A DNA stretch of 64,000 nucleotides, from the NCBI RefSeq assembly GCF_017948455.1, contig NZ_JAFFSU010000001.1, forward strand, positions 682,001-746,000, written 5' to 3'. Position 1 is the first letter of the stretch. Each line of letters opens with the position of its first letter. Shown one piece after another: positions 30,331-36,434 of the stretch. The notes beneath the pieces are model-generated. The model searched no databases. It was not told the DNA's origin and saw only the letters and a program-made list of their open reading frames with translations. The translations under genes and the position numbers were made by a program. Origin of the DNA: Streptomyces sp. GESEQ-4. Lineage in GTDB: Bacteria; Actinomycetota; Actinomycetes; Streptomycetales; Streptomycetaceae.

Positions 30331-30349
30331 CGGCCTTCCCGCGGAGCGC

Positions 30350-30763
30350 TCAGCTCCAGGCCCGGTACGGCTCGTCGACCAGCTGGAACACCGGCTCGCC
30401 GCGGACGGGGTCCTTGGCCGTCGACAGCCGGACCCGGTCGCCGCTGTGGATGCCGATCGGCGGGCCGATGACCCGGCCGCGCACGACGAACCCCTCGGCC
30501 ATCTCGACCAGCGACACATTGCGCGCGGCGGGGGAGTTGCGGTGCACCACCGACGAGTGGCGGACCGTACCGACCCCCTCGCTGCGCTCTGTGCGCAGGT
30601 CGCTGCCCTGGCAGACCGGACAGAGCAGACGGTGGTACATGGCGGTGCCGCACCAGGTGCAGCGCTGGTAGAGGAGGGCATCCGCGTCCCGGGGCGCGGG
30701 GTCGAGTACGCCGGCCGCGGAGCCGGCTGTCGGACGGGCAACGCTTCCTGAGTGGTGGTACAC
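30350..30763 (-). CDS. Zn-ribbon and OB-fold domain protein (DUF35 type)
   Basis: 137 aa. A rubredoxin-like zinc ribbon (CTWCG and CPVC, four Cys) is followed by an OB-fold with VVHRNSPAARNVSLVEMAEG and GDRVRL. Proteins of this type partner thiolases or acyl-CoA hydratases (ChsH2-like) or help acyl transfer; here no thiolase is adjacent, which is unusual. GTG 30763 has GGGAG 8 bp upstream. The promoter about 90 nt upstream contains a perfect TetR-type palindrome, so it is very likely repressed by the TetR protein encoded just upstream. Confidence 0.85.
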   Translation of the reverse strand: MYHHSGSVARPTAGSAAGVLDPAPRDADALLYQRCTWCGTAMYHRLLCPVCQGSDLRTERSEGVGTVRHSSVVHRNSPAARNVSLVEMAEGFVVRGRVIGPPIGIHSGDRVRLSTAKDPVRGEPVFQLVDEPYRAWS

Positions 30764-30856
30764 GCTGTCAACTCCCTGCACTCGGCCGGAATCCCGCGTG
30801 CGCGGGTCGCCCGTGCACGCACGTGCCCGGTTCACCGTGCCACCGTGCACAGCATC

Positions 30857-30898
30857 AGCGTATGGCACTCAGTGCCACTCGTAAAGGTACTGAGTGCC
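30857..30898 (-). promoter_or_regulatory. Promoter of Zn-ribbon gene with two TetR operators (sites 1 and 2)
   Basis: On the minus strand, -35 TTTACG (30885-30880), a 17 bp spacer, and -10 TACGCT (30862-30857). Site 1, TGGCACT-C-AGTGCCA (30863-30877), is a perfect 15 bp palindrome that fills nearly the whole spacer. Site 2, GGTACT-G-AGTGCC (30886-30898), has one mismatch; centres are 22 bp apart, two helical turns. Confidence 0.75.
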
Positions 30899-30923
30899 CT
30901 TGGATGTGGAAGGGCTGTGGGGA

Positions 30924-31625
30924 TCAGTCGCGTCCGAGCGTGGACTCGATCTCCTGGACGACCCGCCACAGGGGCGCTCCCCGGCGGGAGACGACGACCA
31001 CGACGTCCTCCGGCTGCTCACCCGCGAGCGGGGCGGAGGGGGCCAGGGACGCGCCGAAGGCGGACTGTACGTACCCGAGGGCATGGTCCACGGCCGAGTC
31101 CGCGTCGTCCTGTCCGTCCGAACGCAGCCAGGAGCGCAGCGCGTTGTTGTGCGCCGCGACCACGGCCGCCGCGATCACGTCGGCCTGCAGCGTTCCGTCC
31201 GGCCGGCCGGCGAACCGTCCGCGCAGATACGCGGCGAGGGCGCGCTCGTAGCGCCACACCACGGACAGCTCGTACGCCCTCAGCCCCGGCACCTTCTTGG
31301 TGAGGCGGTAGCGCTGCACCGAGAAGGTCGGGTTCTCGGCGTACATACGCAGTACCAGCCGGGCCGCGTCGCAGACCCGGCGCACCGGCTCGTCGTCCTC
31401 GGCGCTGGCGGCGAGGAAGGCCGTCATGTCCGCCAGGCACCGTTCGTGGTCCGGGAAGACCACGTCCTCCTTCGAGGGGAAGTAACGGAAGAACGAGCGC
31501 CGCCCCACCCCCGCCAGCGCCACGATGTCGTCGACGGTGGTCTGCTCATAGCCCCGCTCCAGGAACAGCTGGAAGGCCGCCGCGACCAGGGCGTCCCGCA
31601 TGGGCGGTTTCACGGTGGAGCTCAT
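30924..31625 (-). CDS. TetR family transcriptional repressor
   Basis: 233 aa. N-terminal HTH: ALVAAAFQLFLERGYEQTTV, DDIVALAGVGRRSFFRYFPS, KEDVVF, the standard TetR order. The C-terminal ligand domain is helical and has no recognised pocket signature. No Shine-Dalgarno is seen; a -10 TACGTT (minus strand, 31638-31633) ends 7 nt before the ATG, so the mRNA is probably leaderless. The operator site 3 overlaps the expected -35, implying self-repression. The same operators face the divergent MoxR operon. Confidence 0.93.
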   Translation of the reverse strand: MSSTVKPPMRDALVAAAFQLFLERGYEQTTVDDIVALAGVGRRSFFRYFPSKEDVVFPDHERCLADMTAFLAASAEDDEPVRRVCDAARLVLRMYAENPTFSVQRYRLTKKVPGLRAYELSVVWRYERALAAYLRGRFAGRPDGTLQADVIAAAVVAAHNNALRSWLRSDGQDDADSAVDHALGYVQSAFGASLAPSAPLAGEQPEDVVVVVSRRGAPLWRVVQEIESTLGRD

Positions 31626-31656
31626 GGTCGGGAACGTAGCACCCGACCCCGGGACG

Positions 31657-31693
31657 TGGCACTCAGTGCGCTGTGGAGGGGGAACTGAGTGCG
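31657..31693. promoter_or_regulatory. Two TetR operators between tetR-type gene and MoxR operon (sites 3 and 4)
   Basis: Site 3, GGCACT-C-AGTGCG (31658-31670), and site 4, GGAACT-G-AGTGCG (31681-31693), are variants of the palindrome found at 30863. Centres are 23 bp apart. Site 3 covers the -35 region of the repressor gene; site 4 ends 15 bp upstream of the -35 of the divergent operon. Confidence 0.7.
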
Positions 31694-31707
31694 CTGGAAA
31701 AACGTGG

Positions 31708-31737
31708 CTGACAGATCGACGTCGCGGCGGTTACGGT
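31708..31737 (+). promoter_or_regulatory. Predicted promoter of the MoxR/DUF2201 operon
   Basis: CTGACA (31708-31713), 18 bp spacer, TACGGT (31732-31737). The expected start point is 31744-31745, exactly the ATG of the 18-codon ORF, implying a leaderless transcript. Confidence 0.5.
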
Positions 31738-31744
31738 GTCGGGG

Positions 31745-31801
31745 ATGAAGACCTTCTCCTCGTACGGATTGGGGGAATCATTCGCGCAAGGTGAGTGCTG
31801 A
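31745..31801 (+). CDS. Putative leaderless 18-aa leader peptide
   Basis: ATG 31745 to TGA 31801, encoding MKTFSSYGLGESFAQGEC. The predicted -10 lies 7 nt upstream, so translation could start at the 5' end of the mRNA. Its stop codon overlaps the next start (TGATG), the classic arrangement for translational coupling. The peptide ends in Cys. It could be a coupling leader, a tiny functional peptide or chance; no known precursor class is recognised. Confidence 0.4.
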   Translation: MKTFSSYGLGESFAQGEC

Positions 31802-33357
31802 TGGCACATCACTTCGCGAATGAGATTCCGTCCCGCCTGTTGATGTGGCAGCGCGTGCGTGAGTACGCCGTGCCACCGTCCATGATCGAGACCGCGACCG
31901 CACGGCGTGCCGTCGGCGACTGGGCGGGGGCCTGTGCCGCCGTCCGTATCGACGTCGATCTCGATCTGCACGCCGTGCGCGCCCGCCACGGCATCGATCT
32001 CGTCACCCGTCTCCGAGCGGATCTGCGCCGACTGGCACCGGATCTGCTCCGCTGGCACATGCCCCGGATCGCCCCCGACGGACGGCTCCGGCCCGGCCTC
32101 ACCATCTGTCTGGCGCGTTACCGGAGTTCGGGCGCCACGCCGGTGCAACTGGTGGTGCGTACACCGCCGGCCTGGGCGGACGCCGGACAGCGGATGTCGC
32201 TGGCCGTGTGGGAAGGGTCCGGGACCGGCAGCCCTGGGCCTCATCCCCATCCCCATCCCCATCCGCATCCCGACCGGCGTTTCCGGCTCGACCTGCACCG
32301 GCATCTCTGGGACGCCGGAGTGAGCGGCGAACTGACGCGTCGGTGCGGTGCGGGTGGCGCGTCTTTCACGGTGCTGCCGGACCGACGGAATCCTGCCGGC
32401 CGGGCAGAGCTACCGGACCGGCTGCACCTACCCGGCCGGGCAGAGCCGCCGGACCGGCTGCACCCACCCGGCTGGGCAGAGCTGCCGGACCGGTCCGCCG
32501 TTCACGAGGGCCCGTGGGCGGTGGCACGCTGGGCTGCCGAGGCGGAGTCGCTGTTGCGGGCCGATGGGCTTCCACGCGGGGCCTTCACCGTGCGGCTCGG
32601 TGCGCGCAGACATGCCGTGTTCGAACTCGTCGCCCCCGACGACAGCCATGCTCCGACGCTCCGGCCGCTGCGTGAGGCGGTGACGCCGCAGGAGGTCGCG
32701 GCGCTTCCGGTGCTGCCGGAGGTCGCGGCACGGGTCCTGCCGGATCTGGAACTGCTGCGGGCAGGGCTGGTCACCGCCGAGCGGCTGCACCCGCTCGTCG
32801 CCTCGGCGCTGGAGGCGTCCGGCTCGGTGCCGGTGCCAGGCCCGGCGCCGGGACCCGACCCTCGCGATCCGCACCGGGTGCGGTGCCGGGGCGAGGTCCA
32901 CCGGATCGCGCTGCGGGACGGGGTGCTGACGGCGATCGATCACGACCCGGCTCAACTACGCCGGGAAGAGCTGCTGGTGGCCCTCGGCGGACCGCCGCTG
33001 CCCTGCTTGCGCGCGATCGACGCGGTGCACCGCGACCCGGAGGCACTGCCCGCGGTCCGGGAGCGGCTCGGCCACGGTGACGTCGCCGGGGCGCTGGCCG
33101 TGGTCGAGGGACTGCTCGGGCCCGCCGCGGTCCTGCGCGACGGACCGCTCCGGGAGGCACTGGAGTCGGCCGCGGCACGCCGCATCGACCACGGGCTCTT
33201 CCGCTCGGGACTGGCCGGTGCGGGCGCCGCCGGAGAAGAGACCGCCCCGGACGTGCGGCACGCGCGCCACCGCCCCCGGATCGACCGCCGCACGCCACCC
33301 GCGACGCGCCGCAAGCGGAGCACCCGCTCCCGTCCCCGCACCGGCCTGACTTGCTGA
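31801..33357 (+). CDS. Unrecognised His/Pro-rich protein heading the MoxR/DUF2201 operon
   Basis: 518 aa; I do not recognise a family. It starts with a helical, Arg-rich segment (SRLLMWQRVREYAVPPSMIE, then RAVGDWAGACAAVRID), resembling helical-repeat proteins. A (His-Pro)5 stretch near residue 150 and three 12-residue repeats (PGRAEPPDRLHP type, about 199-232) interrupt it. The C-terminal half is rich in Leu and Ala helices and the tail is strongly basic (RRKRSTRSRPR), suited to nucleic acid or acidic surface binding. No signal peptide. RBS AAGGTGAG before ATG 31801. It might be a substrate or adaptor for the AAA+ and metallopeptidase pair downstream; that is inference. Confidence 0.8.
   Translation: MAHHFANEIPSRLLMWQRVREYAVPPSMIETATARRAVGDWAGACAAVRIDVDLDLHAVRARHGIDLVTRLRADLRRLAPDLLRWHMPRIAPDGRLRPGLTICLARYRSSGATPVQLVVRTPPAWADAGQRMSLAVWEGSGTGSPGPHPHPHPHPHPDRRFRLDLHRHLWDAGVSGELTRRCGAGGASFTVLPDRRNPAGRAELPDRLHLPGRAEPPDRLHPPGWAELPDRSAVHEGPWAVARWAAEAESLLRADGLPRGAFTVRLGARRHAVFELVAPDDSHAPTLRPLREAVTPQEVAALPVLPEVAARVLPDLELLRAGLVTAERLHPLVASALEASGSVPVPGPAPGPDPRDPHRVRCRGEVHRIALRDGVLTAIDHDPAQLRREELLVALGGPPLPCLRAIDAVHRDPEALPAVRERLGHGDVAGALAVVEGLLGPAAVLRDGPLREALESAAARRIDHGLFRSGLAGAGAAGEETAPDVRHARHRPRIDRRTPPATRRKRSTRSRPRTGLTC
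32242..32271 (+). repeat. CATCCC microsatellite inside a gene
   Basis: Five CAT-CCN hexamers coding for (His-Pro)5. Repeat number changes keep the frame, so the tract can lengthen or shorten the His-Pro run, a potential metal-binding element. Confidence 0.85.
32395..32495 (+). repeat. Three tandem 36-bp repeats inside a gene
   Basis: Units start at 32395, 32431 and 32467 (last one partial), each with GGGCAGAGC and CCGGACCGG. They encode 12-residue repeats of the form PGRAExPDRLHx. The period is a multiple of three, so copy number is free to vary without frameshift. Confidence 0.85.
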
Positions 33358-33547
33358 CGGGCCGCCCTGACCGAAGTCCCTTTCCCGCACTGCGCGTTCT
33401 GCGCCGCACGCCCTCGCCATCCCGGACGGGTCGTCCCGTCCCTGCATCGGCCTGACTTGCTGACGGGCCGCCCTGACCGAAGTCCCTTACCCGCACTGCG
33501 CGTTCTGCGCCGCACGCCCTCGCCATCCCGGACGGGTCGTCCCGTCC
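33329..33547 (+). repeat. Tandem duplication, 106-bp unit, spanning a gene end and intergenic DNA
   Basis: Copy 1 (about 33329-33434) contains the last codons and TGA stop of the 518-aa gene; copy 2 (about 33435-33540) repeats them with only a few differences (for example CTTTCCC against CTTACCC). Each unit contains the hairpin GGACGGG-TCGT-CCCGTCC (33424-33441 and 33530-33547). The duplication separates the first gene from the MoxR gene and doubles a terminator-like or mRNA-stabilising hairpin. Confidence 0.85.
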
Positions 33548-33571
33548 CCCGACCCACCCCAGGTGATGCCC

Positions 33572-34867
33572 ATGACCTTCAGTACCGTCCTGCCCGCCCC
33601 CGTTCTGGCCGCCGGCACGTCCGCACCCGCACCCGCCCGCGCCTCCGCGACCGGCACCCATCTCGCCCTGGCCGACGACCTCCTGAGCCTCCTGCGGACG
33701 ACGACCACCGAACCGCGCCCCGACGAGCAGCTCGAAGCGCTCACCCTGGCTGTCGCGGCCGATCTGCCCGTGCTGCTCTGGGGCGAGCCGGGCATCGGGA
33801 AGACGGCGGCCCTCACTCAGCTCGCCACCTCTCTCGACCTGCCGCTGACGACCGTGATCGCCAGCGTCCACGAGCCGTCCGACTTCTCCGGGCTGCCCAT
33901 CGTGGGCGACGATCCGGCGGTGCGGGGGGTGCCGATGGCGCCGCCGCAGTGGGCCGTGGAGCTCGTGCGGGCCGGACGGGGGCTGCTGTTCCTGGACGAA
34001 CTCTCCACCGCCACCCCGGCCGTCCAGGCCGCGCTGCTCCGGGTCGTCCTGGAGCGGAGGGTCGGTGCGCTGCAACTGCCACCGGGGGTGCGGATCGTGG
34101 CCGCCGCCAATCCGCGCGCGTCGGCGGCGGACGGGTGGGAGCTGAGCCCGCCACTGGCCAATCGGTTCGTTCATCTGAACTGGGTGCACGACCGGGAGGT
34201 GGTGGTGCGCGGGCTCGGCGGGGTCTGGCCCCGGGCCGAACTGCCCCGGCTGGTGCCGGAGCGGCTGCCGGAGGCGGTGGCCTTCGCCCGGCGCGCCGTC
34301 TGCGGCTTCCTGGAAGCGAGGCCGACGCTGATCCATCGGCTGCCGAGCACCGAGACGCGGCGCGGCGGCGCCTGGCCGTCCCCCCGCAGCTGGGAGGCCG
34401 CGTTGACGCTGCTGGCCTTCGGCACGGCTGCCTCCGTCTCCCGGGAGGTGCTGGCGCTGCTGGTTCGGGGTGCGGTGGGGGACGGGCCGGGGCTCGAACT
34501 CCTCGCCCATCTGGACCGGATGGACCTGCCGGACCCGGAGTCGCTGCTGGCCGATCCGGCCGCCGCCGAGCTGCCGGTGCGGGGAGATCTGCGTCAGGCG
34601 GCCCTGGAGGCTGTGGTGGCCGCGGTCGGGGCGCGGCCGGAGCGGGAGCGGTGGGAGGCGGGCTGGGCGGTGCTGGTCAGGGCGCTGGAGACCGGCGCCC
34701 CGGACCTGCTGGTCGCCCCGGCGACGGCGCTGGCCGCGCTGCGGCGCGACGACTGGGAGGTGCCGGAGGCGATGGAACGGCTGACCGGGGTGATCGGTCT
34801 CGCCCGGCGGGCGGACCGGTCGGTGGGGCGGATCACGGCTGGGCGTGAGCAGGGGGTGCGCCGATGA
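33572..34867 (+). CDS. MoxR-type AAA+ ATPase
   Basis: 431 aa. Walker A GEPGIGKT (71-78) and Walker B LLFLDE (138-143), with sensor 1 in RIVAAANPRAS and the arginine-rich lid. The MoxR group are chaperone-like ATPases that assemble or activate protein complexes and nearly always pair with a VWA protein, as here. The C-terminal third is longer than in minimal MoxR proteins. ATG 33572 is used because AGGTGA precedes it at 5 bp; upstream in-frame GTG/ATG (33563, 33566) lie inside that RBS. It overlaps the next gene by 4 bases. Confidence 0.9.
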   Translation: MTFSTVLPAPVLAAGTSAPAPARASATGTHLALADDLLSLLRTTTTEPRPDEQLEALTLAVAADLPVLLWGEPGIGKTAALTQLATSLDLPLTTVIASVHEPSDFSGLPIVGDDPAVRGVPMAPPQWAVELVRAGRGLLFLDELSTATPAVQAALLRVVLERRVGALQLPPGVRIVAAANPRASAADGWELSPPLANRFVHLNWVHDREVVVRGLGGVWPRAELPRLVPERLPEAVAFARRAVCGFLEARPTLIHRLPSTETRRGGAWPSPRSWEAALTLLAFGTAASVSREVLALLVRGAVGDGPGLELLAHLDRMDLPDPESLLADPAAAELPVRGDLRQAALEAVVAAVGARPERERWEAGWAVLVRALETGAPDLLVAPATALAALRRDDWEVPEAMERLTGVIGLARRADRSVGRITAGREQGVRR

Positions 34868-36201
34868 CCGGGGCCGTGCGGCGCCCGGTGCCGCGCCCGA
34901 TGTCTCCGCCCCCGCCACCGCGCCCCGTGCGGGCCACCGTGCCGAATCCGCCGGCCGGTTCCGGCGGACCGGACGGGCCCGAACTCCCGCTGGACCTGGA
35001 GAAGTTGCTGGCGGCCAGGCTGCACGCCGTGAAGGTCCGCCCTTACCTTGCCGCCGCACTCTTCGCGCTGCACGTGGTGGAGGACCGGTCGGTGCCGACG
35101 ATGGCGGTGGACGCGCACTGGCGCGTGTACGTCTCGCCCGGCTTCGTGGCGCGCACCCCGGTGGAGGAACTGGCGGGCGTGTGGGTGCACGAGGTCTCCC
35201 ATCTGCTCCGGGACCACCACGGGCGGGGCGAGCGGTATGCGCGGGAGCACGAGGAGCACGGATCGGGCGAGAGGCTGCGGCGGAACATCGCCGCCGACTT
35301 CGAGATCAACGACGACATCTACGGCGACGGTCTGCCCCTGCCGGTCGGGGCGGTCCTGCCGTCGCTGCTGCGGCTGCCCGACGGGCTGCTGATGGAGGAG
35401 TACCTGCGCACGGCGTCGATGACCGGGCTCACCGCGGACCTGGCATGGCTGGACTGCGGCAGTGGCGCCGACGGGCAGCAGCGGCCGTGGGAGCTGGGGC
35501 CGGACGGGGCACACGGGCTGAGCAGGCAGCAGCGGGACGCGGTCCGCTTCCGGGTCGCCGAGGGGATCAAGGGCCGGCCGGGCGAGACACCGGACGGGTG
35601 GCGGCGGTGGGCGGACGAGGCGTTCCATCCGCCGCAGCCGTGGCGGCAGTTGCTCGGGGCGGCGGTCCGTTCGGCGGCGGGTGCGCCGGGGGTGGGCGAG
35701 AACCACAGCTACCGTCGTCCGTCCCGGCGGTCGGCCGGTGTCCCCGGGGTGCTGCTGCCCAGCCTGCGCCGCACGCCGCCCCGGGTCTGTGTCGTGATCG
35801 ACACCTCCGGGTCGGTGAGCGACGCCGAGTTGGGCAGCGCGCTGCTGGAGGTGGCGGCGATCTCGCGGGCGGTGGGCGGGCGGCGCGACCTGGTCTCGGT
35901 GATCTCCTGCGACGCGGCCGCCGGGGTCGCCGTCCCGCTCTGCCGCGCCGAGAGCATCGCCCTGATCGGCGGCGGGGGAACGGATCTGCGCTCCGGTTTC
36001 GCCCGGGCACTCCGCTCGCGACACCGTCCGGACGTCATCGTCGCCCTGACGGACGGTCAGACGCCATGGCCCTCGGCGCAGCCTCCCTGCCGCACCGTCG
36101 TCGGTCTCTTCCCCCGCCCCGCCCACGCCGTGAACGAGAGGAATCCCGACTACACCCCGGAATCCCCGCCGCCCTGGGCGCATGTCGTCACCATCGGCTG
36201 A
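34864..36201 (+). CDS. DUF2201 putative metallopeptidase with VWA-like domain
   Basis: 445 aa. A zinc-peptidase motif VWVHEVSHLL gives His109, Glu110, His113; NIAADFEINDDIYGDG nearby fits DUF2201's N-terminal domain. The C-terminal VWA-like domain has the metal-ion adhesion motif DTSGS (Asp313, Ser315, Ser317) and ALTDGQTPWP. So it is a possible HExxH protease controlled by the MoxR ATPase, whose stop codon overlaps its ATG. Proline-rich first 30 residues, no signal peptide: cytoplasmic. Paired MoxR-DUF2201 genes are widespread but their role is not established. Confidence 0.92.
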   Translation: MTGAVRRPVPRPMSPPPPPRPVRATVPNPPAGSGGPDGPELPLDLEKLLAARLHAVKVRPYLAAALFALHVVEDRSVPTMAVDAHWRVYVSPGFVARTPVEELAGVWVHEVSHLLRDHHGRGERYAREHEEHGSGERLRRNIAADFEINDDIYGDGLPLPVGAVLPSLLRLPDGLLMEEYLRTASMTGLTADLAWLDCGSGADGQQRPWELGPDGAHGLSRQQRDAVRFRVAEGIKGRPGETPDGWRRWADEAFHPPQPWRQLLGAAVRSAAGAPGVGENHSYRRPSRRSAGVPGVLLPSLRRTPPRVCVVIDTSGSVSDAELGSALLEVAAISRAVGGRRDLVSVISCDAAAGVAVPLCRAESIALIGGGGTDLRSGFARALRSRHRPDVIVALTDGQTPWPSAQPPCRTVVGLFPRPAHAVNERNPDYTPESPPPWAHVVTIG

Positions 36202-36434
36202 GAAGGCGCCGCGGGTGGACAGCCGTCGCCCCACAGCAACTGCCGCCACGACTTCACACGACTTCAGCGGATGGATCGCCTCGTCCACCCATCGCCGCCA
36301 CCCCTTGGCACACCACTGCCGCGGGCCGGCCGTGCCAGGTCTGCGGAGTCCCGCTGAACTCCCGGTGCGGCTGCCACGTATCACTCCACGGGGACCGCCC
36401 GGACCCCAGCGCACGGGACGGAAGGAGAAGAGCG
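36202..36434 (+). pseudogene. Zinc-ribbon-like N-terminal remnant before the peptidoglycan-binding gene
   Basis: In the same frame as the following gene, and uninterrupted by stops, is RPCQVCGVPLNSRCGCHV, with a CxxC...CxC pattern like the zinc-ribbon start of many Streptomyces peptidoglycan-binding proteins. No ATG, GTG or TTG precedes it in that frame after the VWA stop; an ATG at 36271 is in another frame and meets a stop. Either a frameshift has cut off this N-terminus, or translation starts at CTG or within the previous gene. Confidence 0.4.

What the first reader, a model, noticed from the sequence alone, without database searches (positions are those of the whole stretch)
30857..31737. 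One TetR repressor with four matching operators at three promoters
The palindrome GGCACT-n-AGTGCC occurs at 30863-30877 (perfect, 15 bp), 30886-30898, 31658-31670 and 31681-31693, in pairs 22 and 23 bp apart. Site 1 fills the 17 bp spacer of the Zn-ribbon gene promoter, site 3 covers the -35 of the repressor gene, and site 4 lies just before the divergent MoxR operon promoter. The positions predict self-repression and joint control of a Zn-ribbon/OB protein and a MoxR/DUF2201 operon. I know of no described regulon that links these.
Basis: partly seen in the sequence, partly recalled or inferred. Interest (0 to 1): 0.85.

Follow-up and report, generated by a model that had tools for sequence, protein, structure and literature searches.

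The report
TetR operators shared with carbon regulon
Four copies of one palindrome flank a Streptomyces TetR-family gene, and related Streptomyces keep them as close pairs over the gene's likely own promoter and that of a neighbouring Zn-ribbon protein gene, which the regulator is therefore predicted to repress; the same palindrome stands before citrate synthase, pyruvate phosphate dikinase and the ethylmalonyl-CoA genes, which suggests one shared control circuit, while the MoxR operon next door is an insertion not seen there in the relatives examined and probably not a target.

Summary
The four palindromes are real and are not chance. In 80 of 80 named Streptomyces loci the TetR gene has a palindrome pair on each side and the Zn-ribbon/OB (DUF35) gene next to it. 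The pair before DUF35 is 22 bp apart in 80 of 80; it brackets a -35 kept in 79 of 80, and site 1 fills the promoter spacer. This supports autorepression and repression of DUF35. The MoxR half of the idea fails: the operon adjoins the TetR gene in 0 of those 80 loci (10 have short flanks), the window's junction is unbroken only in the window's own genome among the rows listed for 392 genomes, and relatives carry the operon elsewhere without upstream palindromes (0 of 18). It is a 4.65-kb insertion whose edge touches site 4. What is new: the closest paralogue (47%) sits beside ccr, with a 22-bp-spaced variant pair before ccr in 38 of 38 loci where ccr was in reach. The same palindrome precedes gltA (30 of 30), ppdk (30 of 30) and a second citrate synthase (23 of 30). 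Half-site and spacing match the published MftR operator. Acyl-CoA as ligand is inferred. Nothing was tested at the bench.

The parts
30350..30763 (-). Zn-ribbon/OB (DUF35, ChsH2-like) gene, 137 aa from GTG 30763; an in-frame GTG at 30850 lies 6 nt after the -10 and could be a leaderless start
   Evidence: PF12172 above cut-off (30.6 vs 23.2), PF01796 below cut-off (24.3 vs 27.1); Cys pairs 35/38 and 48/51 invariant in 11 sequences; ChsH2 chain 6ok1 E=1e-9
30857..30885 (-). predicted promoter of the DUF35 gene: -35 TTTACG, 17-bp spacer, -10 TACGCT
   Evidence: cTTTAC kept in 79 of 80 loci; -10 TACGCT, TACTCT or TACCCT in 71 of 80
30863..30877 (.). site 1, perfect 15-bp palindrome inside the promoter spacer
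   Evidence: counterpart kept in 80 of 80 loci
30886..30898 (.). site 2, 22 bp from site 1, abutting the -35
   Evidence: 22-bp spacing 80 of 80
30924..31625 (-). TetR-family regulator, 233 aa
   Evidence: PF00440 and PF17754 (MftR C-terminal domain) above cut-off; all-helical AF2 model, mean pLDDT 80.6
31633..31638 (-). predicted -10 of the TetR gene; 7 nt to ATG, so a leaderless mRNA is likely
   Evidence: TGCTA-type -10 followed closely by ATG in 72 of 80 loci
31658..31670 (.). site 3, over the predicted -35 region of the TetR gene
   Evidence: upstream pair kept in 80 of 80 loci
31681..31693 (.). site 4, 23 bp from site 3; homology to relatives ends at 31692
   Evidence: spacing 23 bp in 67, 22 bp in 10, 32-33 bp in 3 of 80 loci
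31693..36349 (+). inserted block: leader ORF, orf520, MoxR-type ATPase, DUF2201; NOT part of the conserved regulatory unit
   Evidence: blastn breakpoints 31692 and 36350 against loci from two related genomes; about 31701-36198 matches MoxR operons at other loci; junction unbroken only here among the rows listed for 392 genomes

Best explanation
A TetR-family regulator likely represses its own gene and the adjacent DUF35 Zn-ribbon gene by binding, as two dimers side by side, paired GGCACT-S-AGTGCC palindromes that lie over both predicted promoters, and its presumed operator is a close variant of the palindrome found before ccr, gltA and ppdk. Shown by sequence: the four sites, their conservation, the 22/23-bp (about two helical turns) spacing, their place on conserved promoter-like elements, the DUF35 linkage, the MoxR insertion, and the paralogue beside ccr with its own 22-bp-spaced pairs. 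Inferred: that this protein binds these sites; that it represses, since sites 1 and 3 sit where RNA polymerase would bind; that an acyl-CoA releases it; and that the regulator of the ccr/gltA/ppdk set is the ccr-linked paralogue. In other Streptomyces the same TetR gene, and in two loci outside the genus a related one, adjoins acyl-CoA dehydrogenase, ETF or 3-hydroxyacyl-CoA dehydrogenase genes, so the module most likely belongs to acyl-CoA catabolism and the window holds a cut-down form (TetR + DUF35).
For: Pairs on both sides of the TetR gene in 80 of 80 named loci (the best 80 of 473 candidates), with pair scores of at most 5 mismatches. In the upstream 300 bp 68 of 68 full-length loci reach that score, against 0 of 2040 random stretches of the same loci and 2 of 2720 tests with permuted palindromes. 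In the 61-genome sample, 30 loci of the 34 TetR-positive genomes were fetched; 26 of 30 have two or more sites on each side at the threshold. DUF35 lies beside the TetR gene in 32 of the 34 genomes that have it. The two genomes with DUF35 but without this TetR gene keep a 22-bp site pair before DUF35 (L103, L104), and both hold the ccr-linked paralogue. ccr-linked paralogue in 59 of 61 genomes; 22-bp pairs before ccr in 38 of 38 loci where ccr was in reach, of 48 examined. Palindrome with at most 2 mismatches before gltA 30 of 30, ppdk 30 of 30, citA-like 23 of 30. In G015 the acyl-CoA dehydrogenase copy in the TetR cluster has a pair just before its start; its 99% identical second copy and the single copies in the 11 other genomes have no site with 2 or fewer mismatches. 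Four of four loci fetched outside the genus have at least one such site beside the related TetR gene. The MftR operator is T-N2-GGCA-N5-TGCC-N2-A with acyl-CoA effectors (PMC8728441, abstract and passages).
Against: No binding or expression data. Loci share ancestry, so counts are not independent events. G008 has neither TetR gene at the thresholds used yet keeps GGCACTGCGTGCC before gltA, so another protein may use that site. Of the 10 paralogue loci where ccr was not in reach, 7 show no site with 2 or fewer mismatches in the stretch fetched. The residue that I align with MftR His68, needed there for oleoyl-CoA binding, is Cys63 here (alignment to MftR-like chains, numbering inferred), so the ligand cannot be carried over. 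Seven of 30 citA-like loci lack a site. L030, L032, L034 and L036 have only one site on one side at the threshold. I did not test whether the gltA, ppdk and citA promoters are less conserved outside the palindrome.
Confidence: 0.82

Rival explanations
1. One reading: the regulator jointly controls the DUF35 gene and the MoxR/DUF2201 operon, as an evolved link between the two.
For: Site 4 lies 14 bp before the MoxR-operon -35 in the window; in this one strain the bound repressor could still affect that promoter.
Against: Adjacent only in the window's genome. Of 20 MoxR-operon loci fetched from the 33 other genomes with a match, 18 are readable upstream of orf520 and none has a site with 2 or fewer mismatches within 400 bp; the only such hit in the 20 loci lies inside one operon (L088). 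Both sites lie upstream of the MoxR -35, not in it.
Confidence: 0.08
2. The four sites are bound mainly by the ccr-linked paralogue, and the local TetR protein has another role or only competes with it.
For: Half-sites overlap: window type GG(C/T/A)ACT, ccr type G(G/A)CAC(G/T/C); two genomes that lack the local gene keep the DUF35 site pair; recognition-helix region nearly identical, GVGRRSFFRYF vs GVARRTFFRHF.
Against: The upstream pair sits over the local gene's own predicted promoter in the loci examined; sites 2 and 4 carry T or A at half-site position 3, not seen in 152 ccr-type half-sites.
Confidence: 0.12
3. The palindromes are terminators or chance inverted repeats, not operators.
For: Short inverted repeats are common in GC-rich DNA.
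Against: Expectation 0.006 perfect sites per 64 kb; 22-bp spacing and promoter place on the DUF35 side in 80 of 80 loci; a one-base centre cannot form a hairpin loop.
Confidence: 0.01

Closest known systems
MftR of Mycobacterium smegmatis (mycofactocin regulator; PMC8728441, abstract and passages)
   Same: TetR; the window protein has the MftR C-terminal domain PF17754; operator core GGCA-N5-TGCC, as in GGCA-CTSAG-TGCC
   Different: Window protein scores 104.7 against the NCBIfam MftR cut-off of 224.9, and the six other window proteins scanned matched no mycofactocin model; MftR's 27-bp operator is described as one palindrome; the residue that I align with His68 is Cys63
SCO6474-type TetR beside ccr in Streptomyces (the window genome's closest paralogue)
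   Same: 46-47% identity over nearly the full length; pairs of the same palindrome class 22 bp apart
   Different: Half-site rules differ; sits in the ethylmalonyl-CoA gene cluster and in 59 of 61 genomes. Its identity with SCO6474 rests on gene order as given in passages of PMC7324645 and PMC3087709
SCO3201 of S. coelicolor, binding site TGGCAGATTCTGCCA (PMC7324645, passages)
   Same: TetR; same outer half-sites TGGCA-N5-TGCCA
   Different: Inner bases differ; the targets named in the passages are other genes; that paper found no SCO3201 site before sco6475 or sco6474
CcrR of Methylobacterium extorquens (Hu and Lidstrom 2012; only its title was seen, in a reference list)
   Same: TetR-family regulator of an ethylmalonyl-CoA pathway gene, by its title
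   Different: Title says activator; operator not seen by me; paper not held

Membership tests
TetR family (PF00440) | N-terminal HTH above the Pfam cut-off and all-helical fold | tested here: met
   58.4 bits vs 24; helices only in the AF2 model
TetR family (PF00440) | palindromic operators over own promoter | tested here: met
   by sequence and conservation only, binding untested
MftR (TIGR03968) | score above the equivalog cut-off | tested here: not met
   104.7 vs 224.9 bits
MftR (TIGR03968) | MftR C-terminal domain PF17754 | tested here: met
   39.1 vs 22.7 bits
MftR (TIGR03968) | GGCA-N5-TGCC operator core | tested here: met
   site 1 is TGGCA-CTCAG-TGCCA; MftR palindrome from PMC8728441
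MftR (TIGR03968) | His68, needed for oleoyl-CoA binding | tested here: not met
   aligned residue is Cys63 (alignment to chains 2rae and 8x0a, numbering inferred)
MftR (TIGR03968) | binds long-chain acyl-CoA | not testable with these tools
   needs protein
ChsH2/DUF35 (PF12172 + PF01796) | rubredoxin-like Zn ribbon | tested here: met
   30.6 vs 23.2 bits; two invariant CxxC pairs
ChsH2/DUF35 (PF12172 + PF01796) | OB-fold domain above cut-off | tested here: inconclusive
   24.3 vs 27.1 bits; strands predicted, mean pLDDT 77; fold search not open
ChsH2/DUF35 (PF12172 + PF01796) | thiolase or MaoC partner encoded beside it | tested here: inconclusive
   only seven window proteins were scanned, none of them such an enzyme; neighbours in other genomes were not all scanned

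The most novel reading that the evidence does not exclude
Streptomyces run a two-tier acyl-CoA-sensing network written in one operator alphabet. A core TetR beside ccr sets citrate synthase (gltA and a second one), pyruvate phosphate dikinase and the ethylmalonyl-CoA pathway. A second, patchily distributed paralogue with a slightly shifted half-site code (GG[C/T/A]ACT) rides with acyl-CoA dehydrogenase/ETF/DUF35 modules, and because the perfect palindrome satisfies both proteins, each such module plugs into the central acetyl-CoA regulon.
Probability: 0.35. Interest if true: 0.72.

Novelty: new member of a known kind. Interest (0 to 1): 0.55.

Why it matters
If the palindrome is the operator of one paralogous regulator pair, it gives a direct handle on how Streptomyces split acetyl-CoA between the TCA cycle (gltA), PEP synthesis (ppdk) and the ethylmalonyl-CoA pathway (ccr), which also supplies polyketide extender units (the last two roles from general knowledge). 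I found no report of this set in searches: only the listed rows were looked at, in a library of open-licence PubMed Central papers that lacks most subscription journals. One search covered the letters themselves: among its 20 listed papers (of 274) the full 13-mer occurs in one, on a human gene. The MoxR case is a useful caution: a block of DNA landing against an operator can look like a regulon member in one genome.

Tried and rejected
One search searched GGCACT-NNN-AGTGCC, the wrong centre length, and is uninformative. The MoxR/DUF2201 operon as a conserved target was tested and rejected. A GTG 6-7 nt after the DUF35 -10 was considered as the true start: it is present in 80 of 80 loci but opens a frame reaching the Zn ribbon in only 36 of 80, so I leave the start open. 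Imperfect palindromes on contigs C3 (two), C10, C45 and C75 were not followed; C10 and C75 lie inside predicted genes. A plasmid search gave five records and nothing decisive. One search read some loci in the wrong orientation (up and down swapped); one search corrected it. A first random-stretch control was leaky, because in short loci it could include real sites (47 of 2492 stretches scored 1-4); one search replaced it, using 68 full-length loci of 80. My notebook says 39 ccr pairs and 20 MoxR loci without palindromes; the checked numbers are 38 and 18 readable.

Spread beyond Streptomyces was only sampled: 43 of 197 genomes of the class, same-genus ones included, matched at 1e-38; four loci outside the genus were fetched and read (L321, L323, L324, L325). 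Their TetR genes are relatives, not proven orthologues.

Full report
Observation. The expectation per 64 kb is 0.006 perfect, 0.24 with at most one and 4.2 with at most two mismatches; the window holds 1, 3 and 9, and the 1 and the 3 all lie in this locus. A genome-wide scan for GGNACTSAGTGCS gave 18 strand hits at 13 places, against 2 for the reversed control.

Genes. The regulator (30924-31625, minus) is TetR with an MftR-type C-terminal domain. The gene downstream (30350-30763, minus) is a Zn-ribbon DUF35 protein whose OB domain scores just below the Pfam cut-off. On the other side lie orf520 (no Pfam hit), a MoxR-like AAA ATPase and a DUF2201 protein.

Conservation. In 61 Streptomyces genomes the TetR gene is in 34 (61% identity or more) and the DUF35 gene in 34, adjacent in 32. 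Thirty loci were fetched; each has a best palindrome pair of 5 or fewer mismatches on each side. At the per-site threshold, 26 of 30 have two or more sites on both sides; L030, L032, L034 and L036 have a single one on one side. Of 473 named candidates the best 80 were kept. All 80 have DUF35 next to the TetR gene and pairs on both sides; ten of the 80 have under 4 kb of upstream DNA. Spacing is 22 bp in 80 of 80 on the DUF35 side; on the TetR side it is 23 bp in 67, 22 bp in 10 and 32-33 bp in 3. Control: in the upstream 300 bp 68 of 68 full-length loci score 5 or less, while 0 of 2040 random stretches and 2 of 2720 permuted-palindrome tests do.

Promoters. On the DUF35 side the -35 element cTTTAC is kept in 79 of 80 loci and the -10 is TACGCT, TACTCT or TACCCT in 71 of 80. 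Site 1 fills the spacer and site 2 abuts the -35. The TetR gene has a TGCTA-type -10 just before ATG in 72 of 80 loci. These positions fit a repressor that blocks polymerase; this is inference.

MoxR operon. Of 21 sampled genomes that hold both the TetR gene and a DUF2201 match, only the window's has them adjacent. None of the 80 named loci has the operon beside the TetR gene. Against loci from two related genomes (L136; L110 and L137 are the same place) homology runs from about 30349 to 31692 and resumes at 36350; most of the block between, 31701 to 36198, matches MoxR operons at other places in other genomes. With 271 bases across the junction, 267 of 392 genomes matched, but in the listed rows only the window's genome matched across it; further rows were not listed. 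Twenty MoxR loci were fetched, of 33 other genomes with a match. One hit of two or fewer mismatches was found, inside an operon (L088). Eighteen of the 20 could be read upstream of orf520: the best palindrome there has 3 mismatches in 1, 4 in 12 and 5 in 5, and all 18 have a short leader ORF like the window's. L096 is cut short and L097 gave no orf520 match. A promoter-like stretch before the leader is visible in the printed sequences but was not counted.

Paralogue and regulon. The next best TetR listed for the genome (47%) lies between ccr and a 3-hydroxyacyl-CoA dehydrogenase gene, which matches the order of sco6473, sco6474 and sco6475 in passages of two papers. It is in 59 of 61 genomes. 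Of 48 of its loci ccr could be placed in 38, and all 38 have a 22-bp-spaced pair before ccr; of the other 10, three show a site of two or fewer mismatches and seven none. Half-site rules differ: window type GG(C/T/A)ACT, 880 half-sites; ccr type G(G/A)CAC(G/T/C), 152 half-sites. Perfect sites also precede gltA, a citA-like citrate synthase gene and ppdk in the window's genome. Across 30 fetched loci each (of 61, 59 and 60 genomes with a match), a site of two or fewer mismatches is present in 30 of 30 for gltA (29 perfect, 111-115 bp before the start), 30 of 30 for ppdk (18 perfect) and 23 of 30 for citA. Six of the gltA loci come from genomes without the window TetR gene and keep a site. One of these, G008, also lacks the ccr-linked gene at the threshold used, which my reading does not explain.

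Context. In G015 the TetR gene lies with SDR, DUF35, ETF and acyl-CoA dehydrogenase genes, and the dehydrogenase gene has its own pair; its 99% identical second copy and the single copies in the 11 other genomes have no site of two or fewer mismatches. In G055, G058, G030 and G045 the neighbour is an acyl-CoA dehydrogenase gene. In G019, G023, G052 and G059 it is an ETF gene, Pfam-scanned in the first two, the others by like sequence. In further genomes the neighbour is something else, so the divergent partner varies. Outside the genus, L324 has an acyl-CoA dehydrogenase gene and L321 a 3-hydroxyacyl-CoA dehydrogenase gene beside a related TetR gene with sites. Two genomes without the TetR gene keep DUF35 with a pair (L103, L104).

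Known relatives. The MftR operator is T-N2-GGCA-N5-TGCC-N2-A and its effectors are long-chain acyl-CoAs; single-base changes in that palindrome did not stop MftR binding (PMC8728441, abstract and passages). SCO3201 binds TGGCAGATTCTGCCA (PMC7324645, passages). The window protein is not an MftR by the curated cut-off. The part of an operator table of PMC3511530 that was shown (passage) does not hold this palindrome.

Verdict. The regulator-operator unit is real and ordinary in kind. The MoxR link looks like a private accident. The shared palindrome at central carbon genes is the interesting part and is open to test.

Noticed in passing
window 31745-31801: Leader ORF MKTFSSYGLGESFAQGEC-stop, 7 nt after a -10-like element, its stop overlapping the orf520 ATG; a similar leader ending in GEC or GER stands before orf520 in 18 of 18 readable relatives. 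Looks like a conserved leader peptide of the MoxR operon.
   Followed up: partly
window 30848-30850: GTG 6-7 nt after the DUF35 -10 in 80 of 80 loci, opening a frame that reaches the Zn ribbon in 36 and does not in 44.
   Followed up: partly
L237 (G008): A genome without either TetR gene at the thresholds used still has GGCACTGCGTGCC before gltA.
   Followed up: no
L050 5777-5789: GGCACTCAGTTCC at the start of a urocanase gene (Pfam), 31 bp before the called start; the Pfam match begins inside the model, so the site may lie within the gene.
   Followed up: partly
L049 3413-3435: GGTACTCAGC followed 10 bp on by GGTACTCAGTGCC, between an adenosylhomocysteinase gene and a hypothetical gene.
   Followed up: partly
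window 32300-33560: Repetitive coding in orf520 (HP repeats, LPDRLHLPGRA-like units) and a repeated stretch before the MoxR gene.
   Followed up: no
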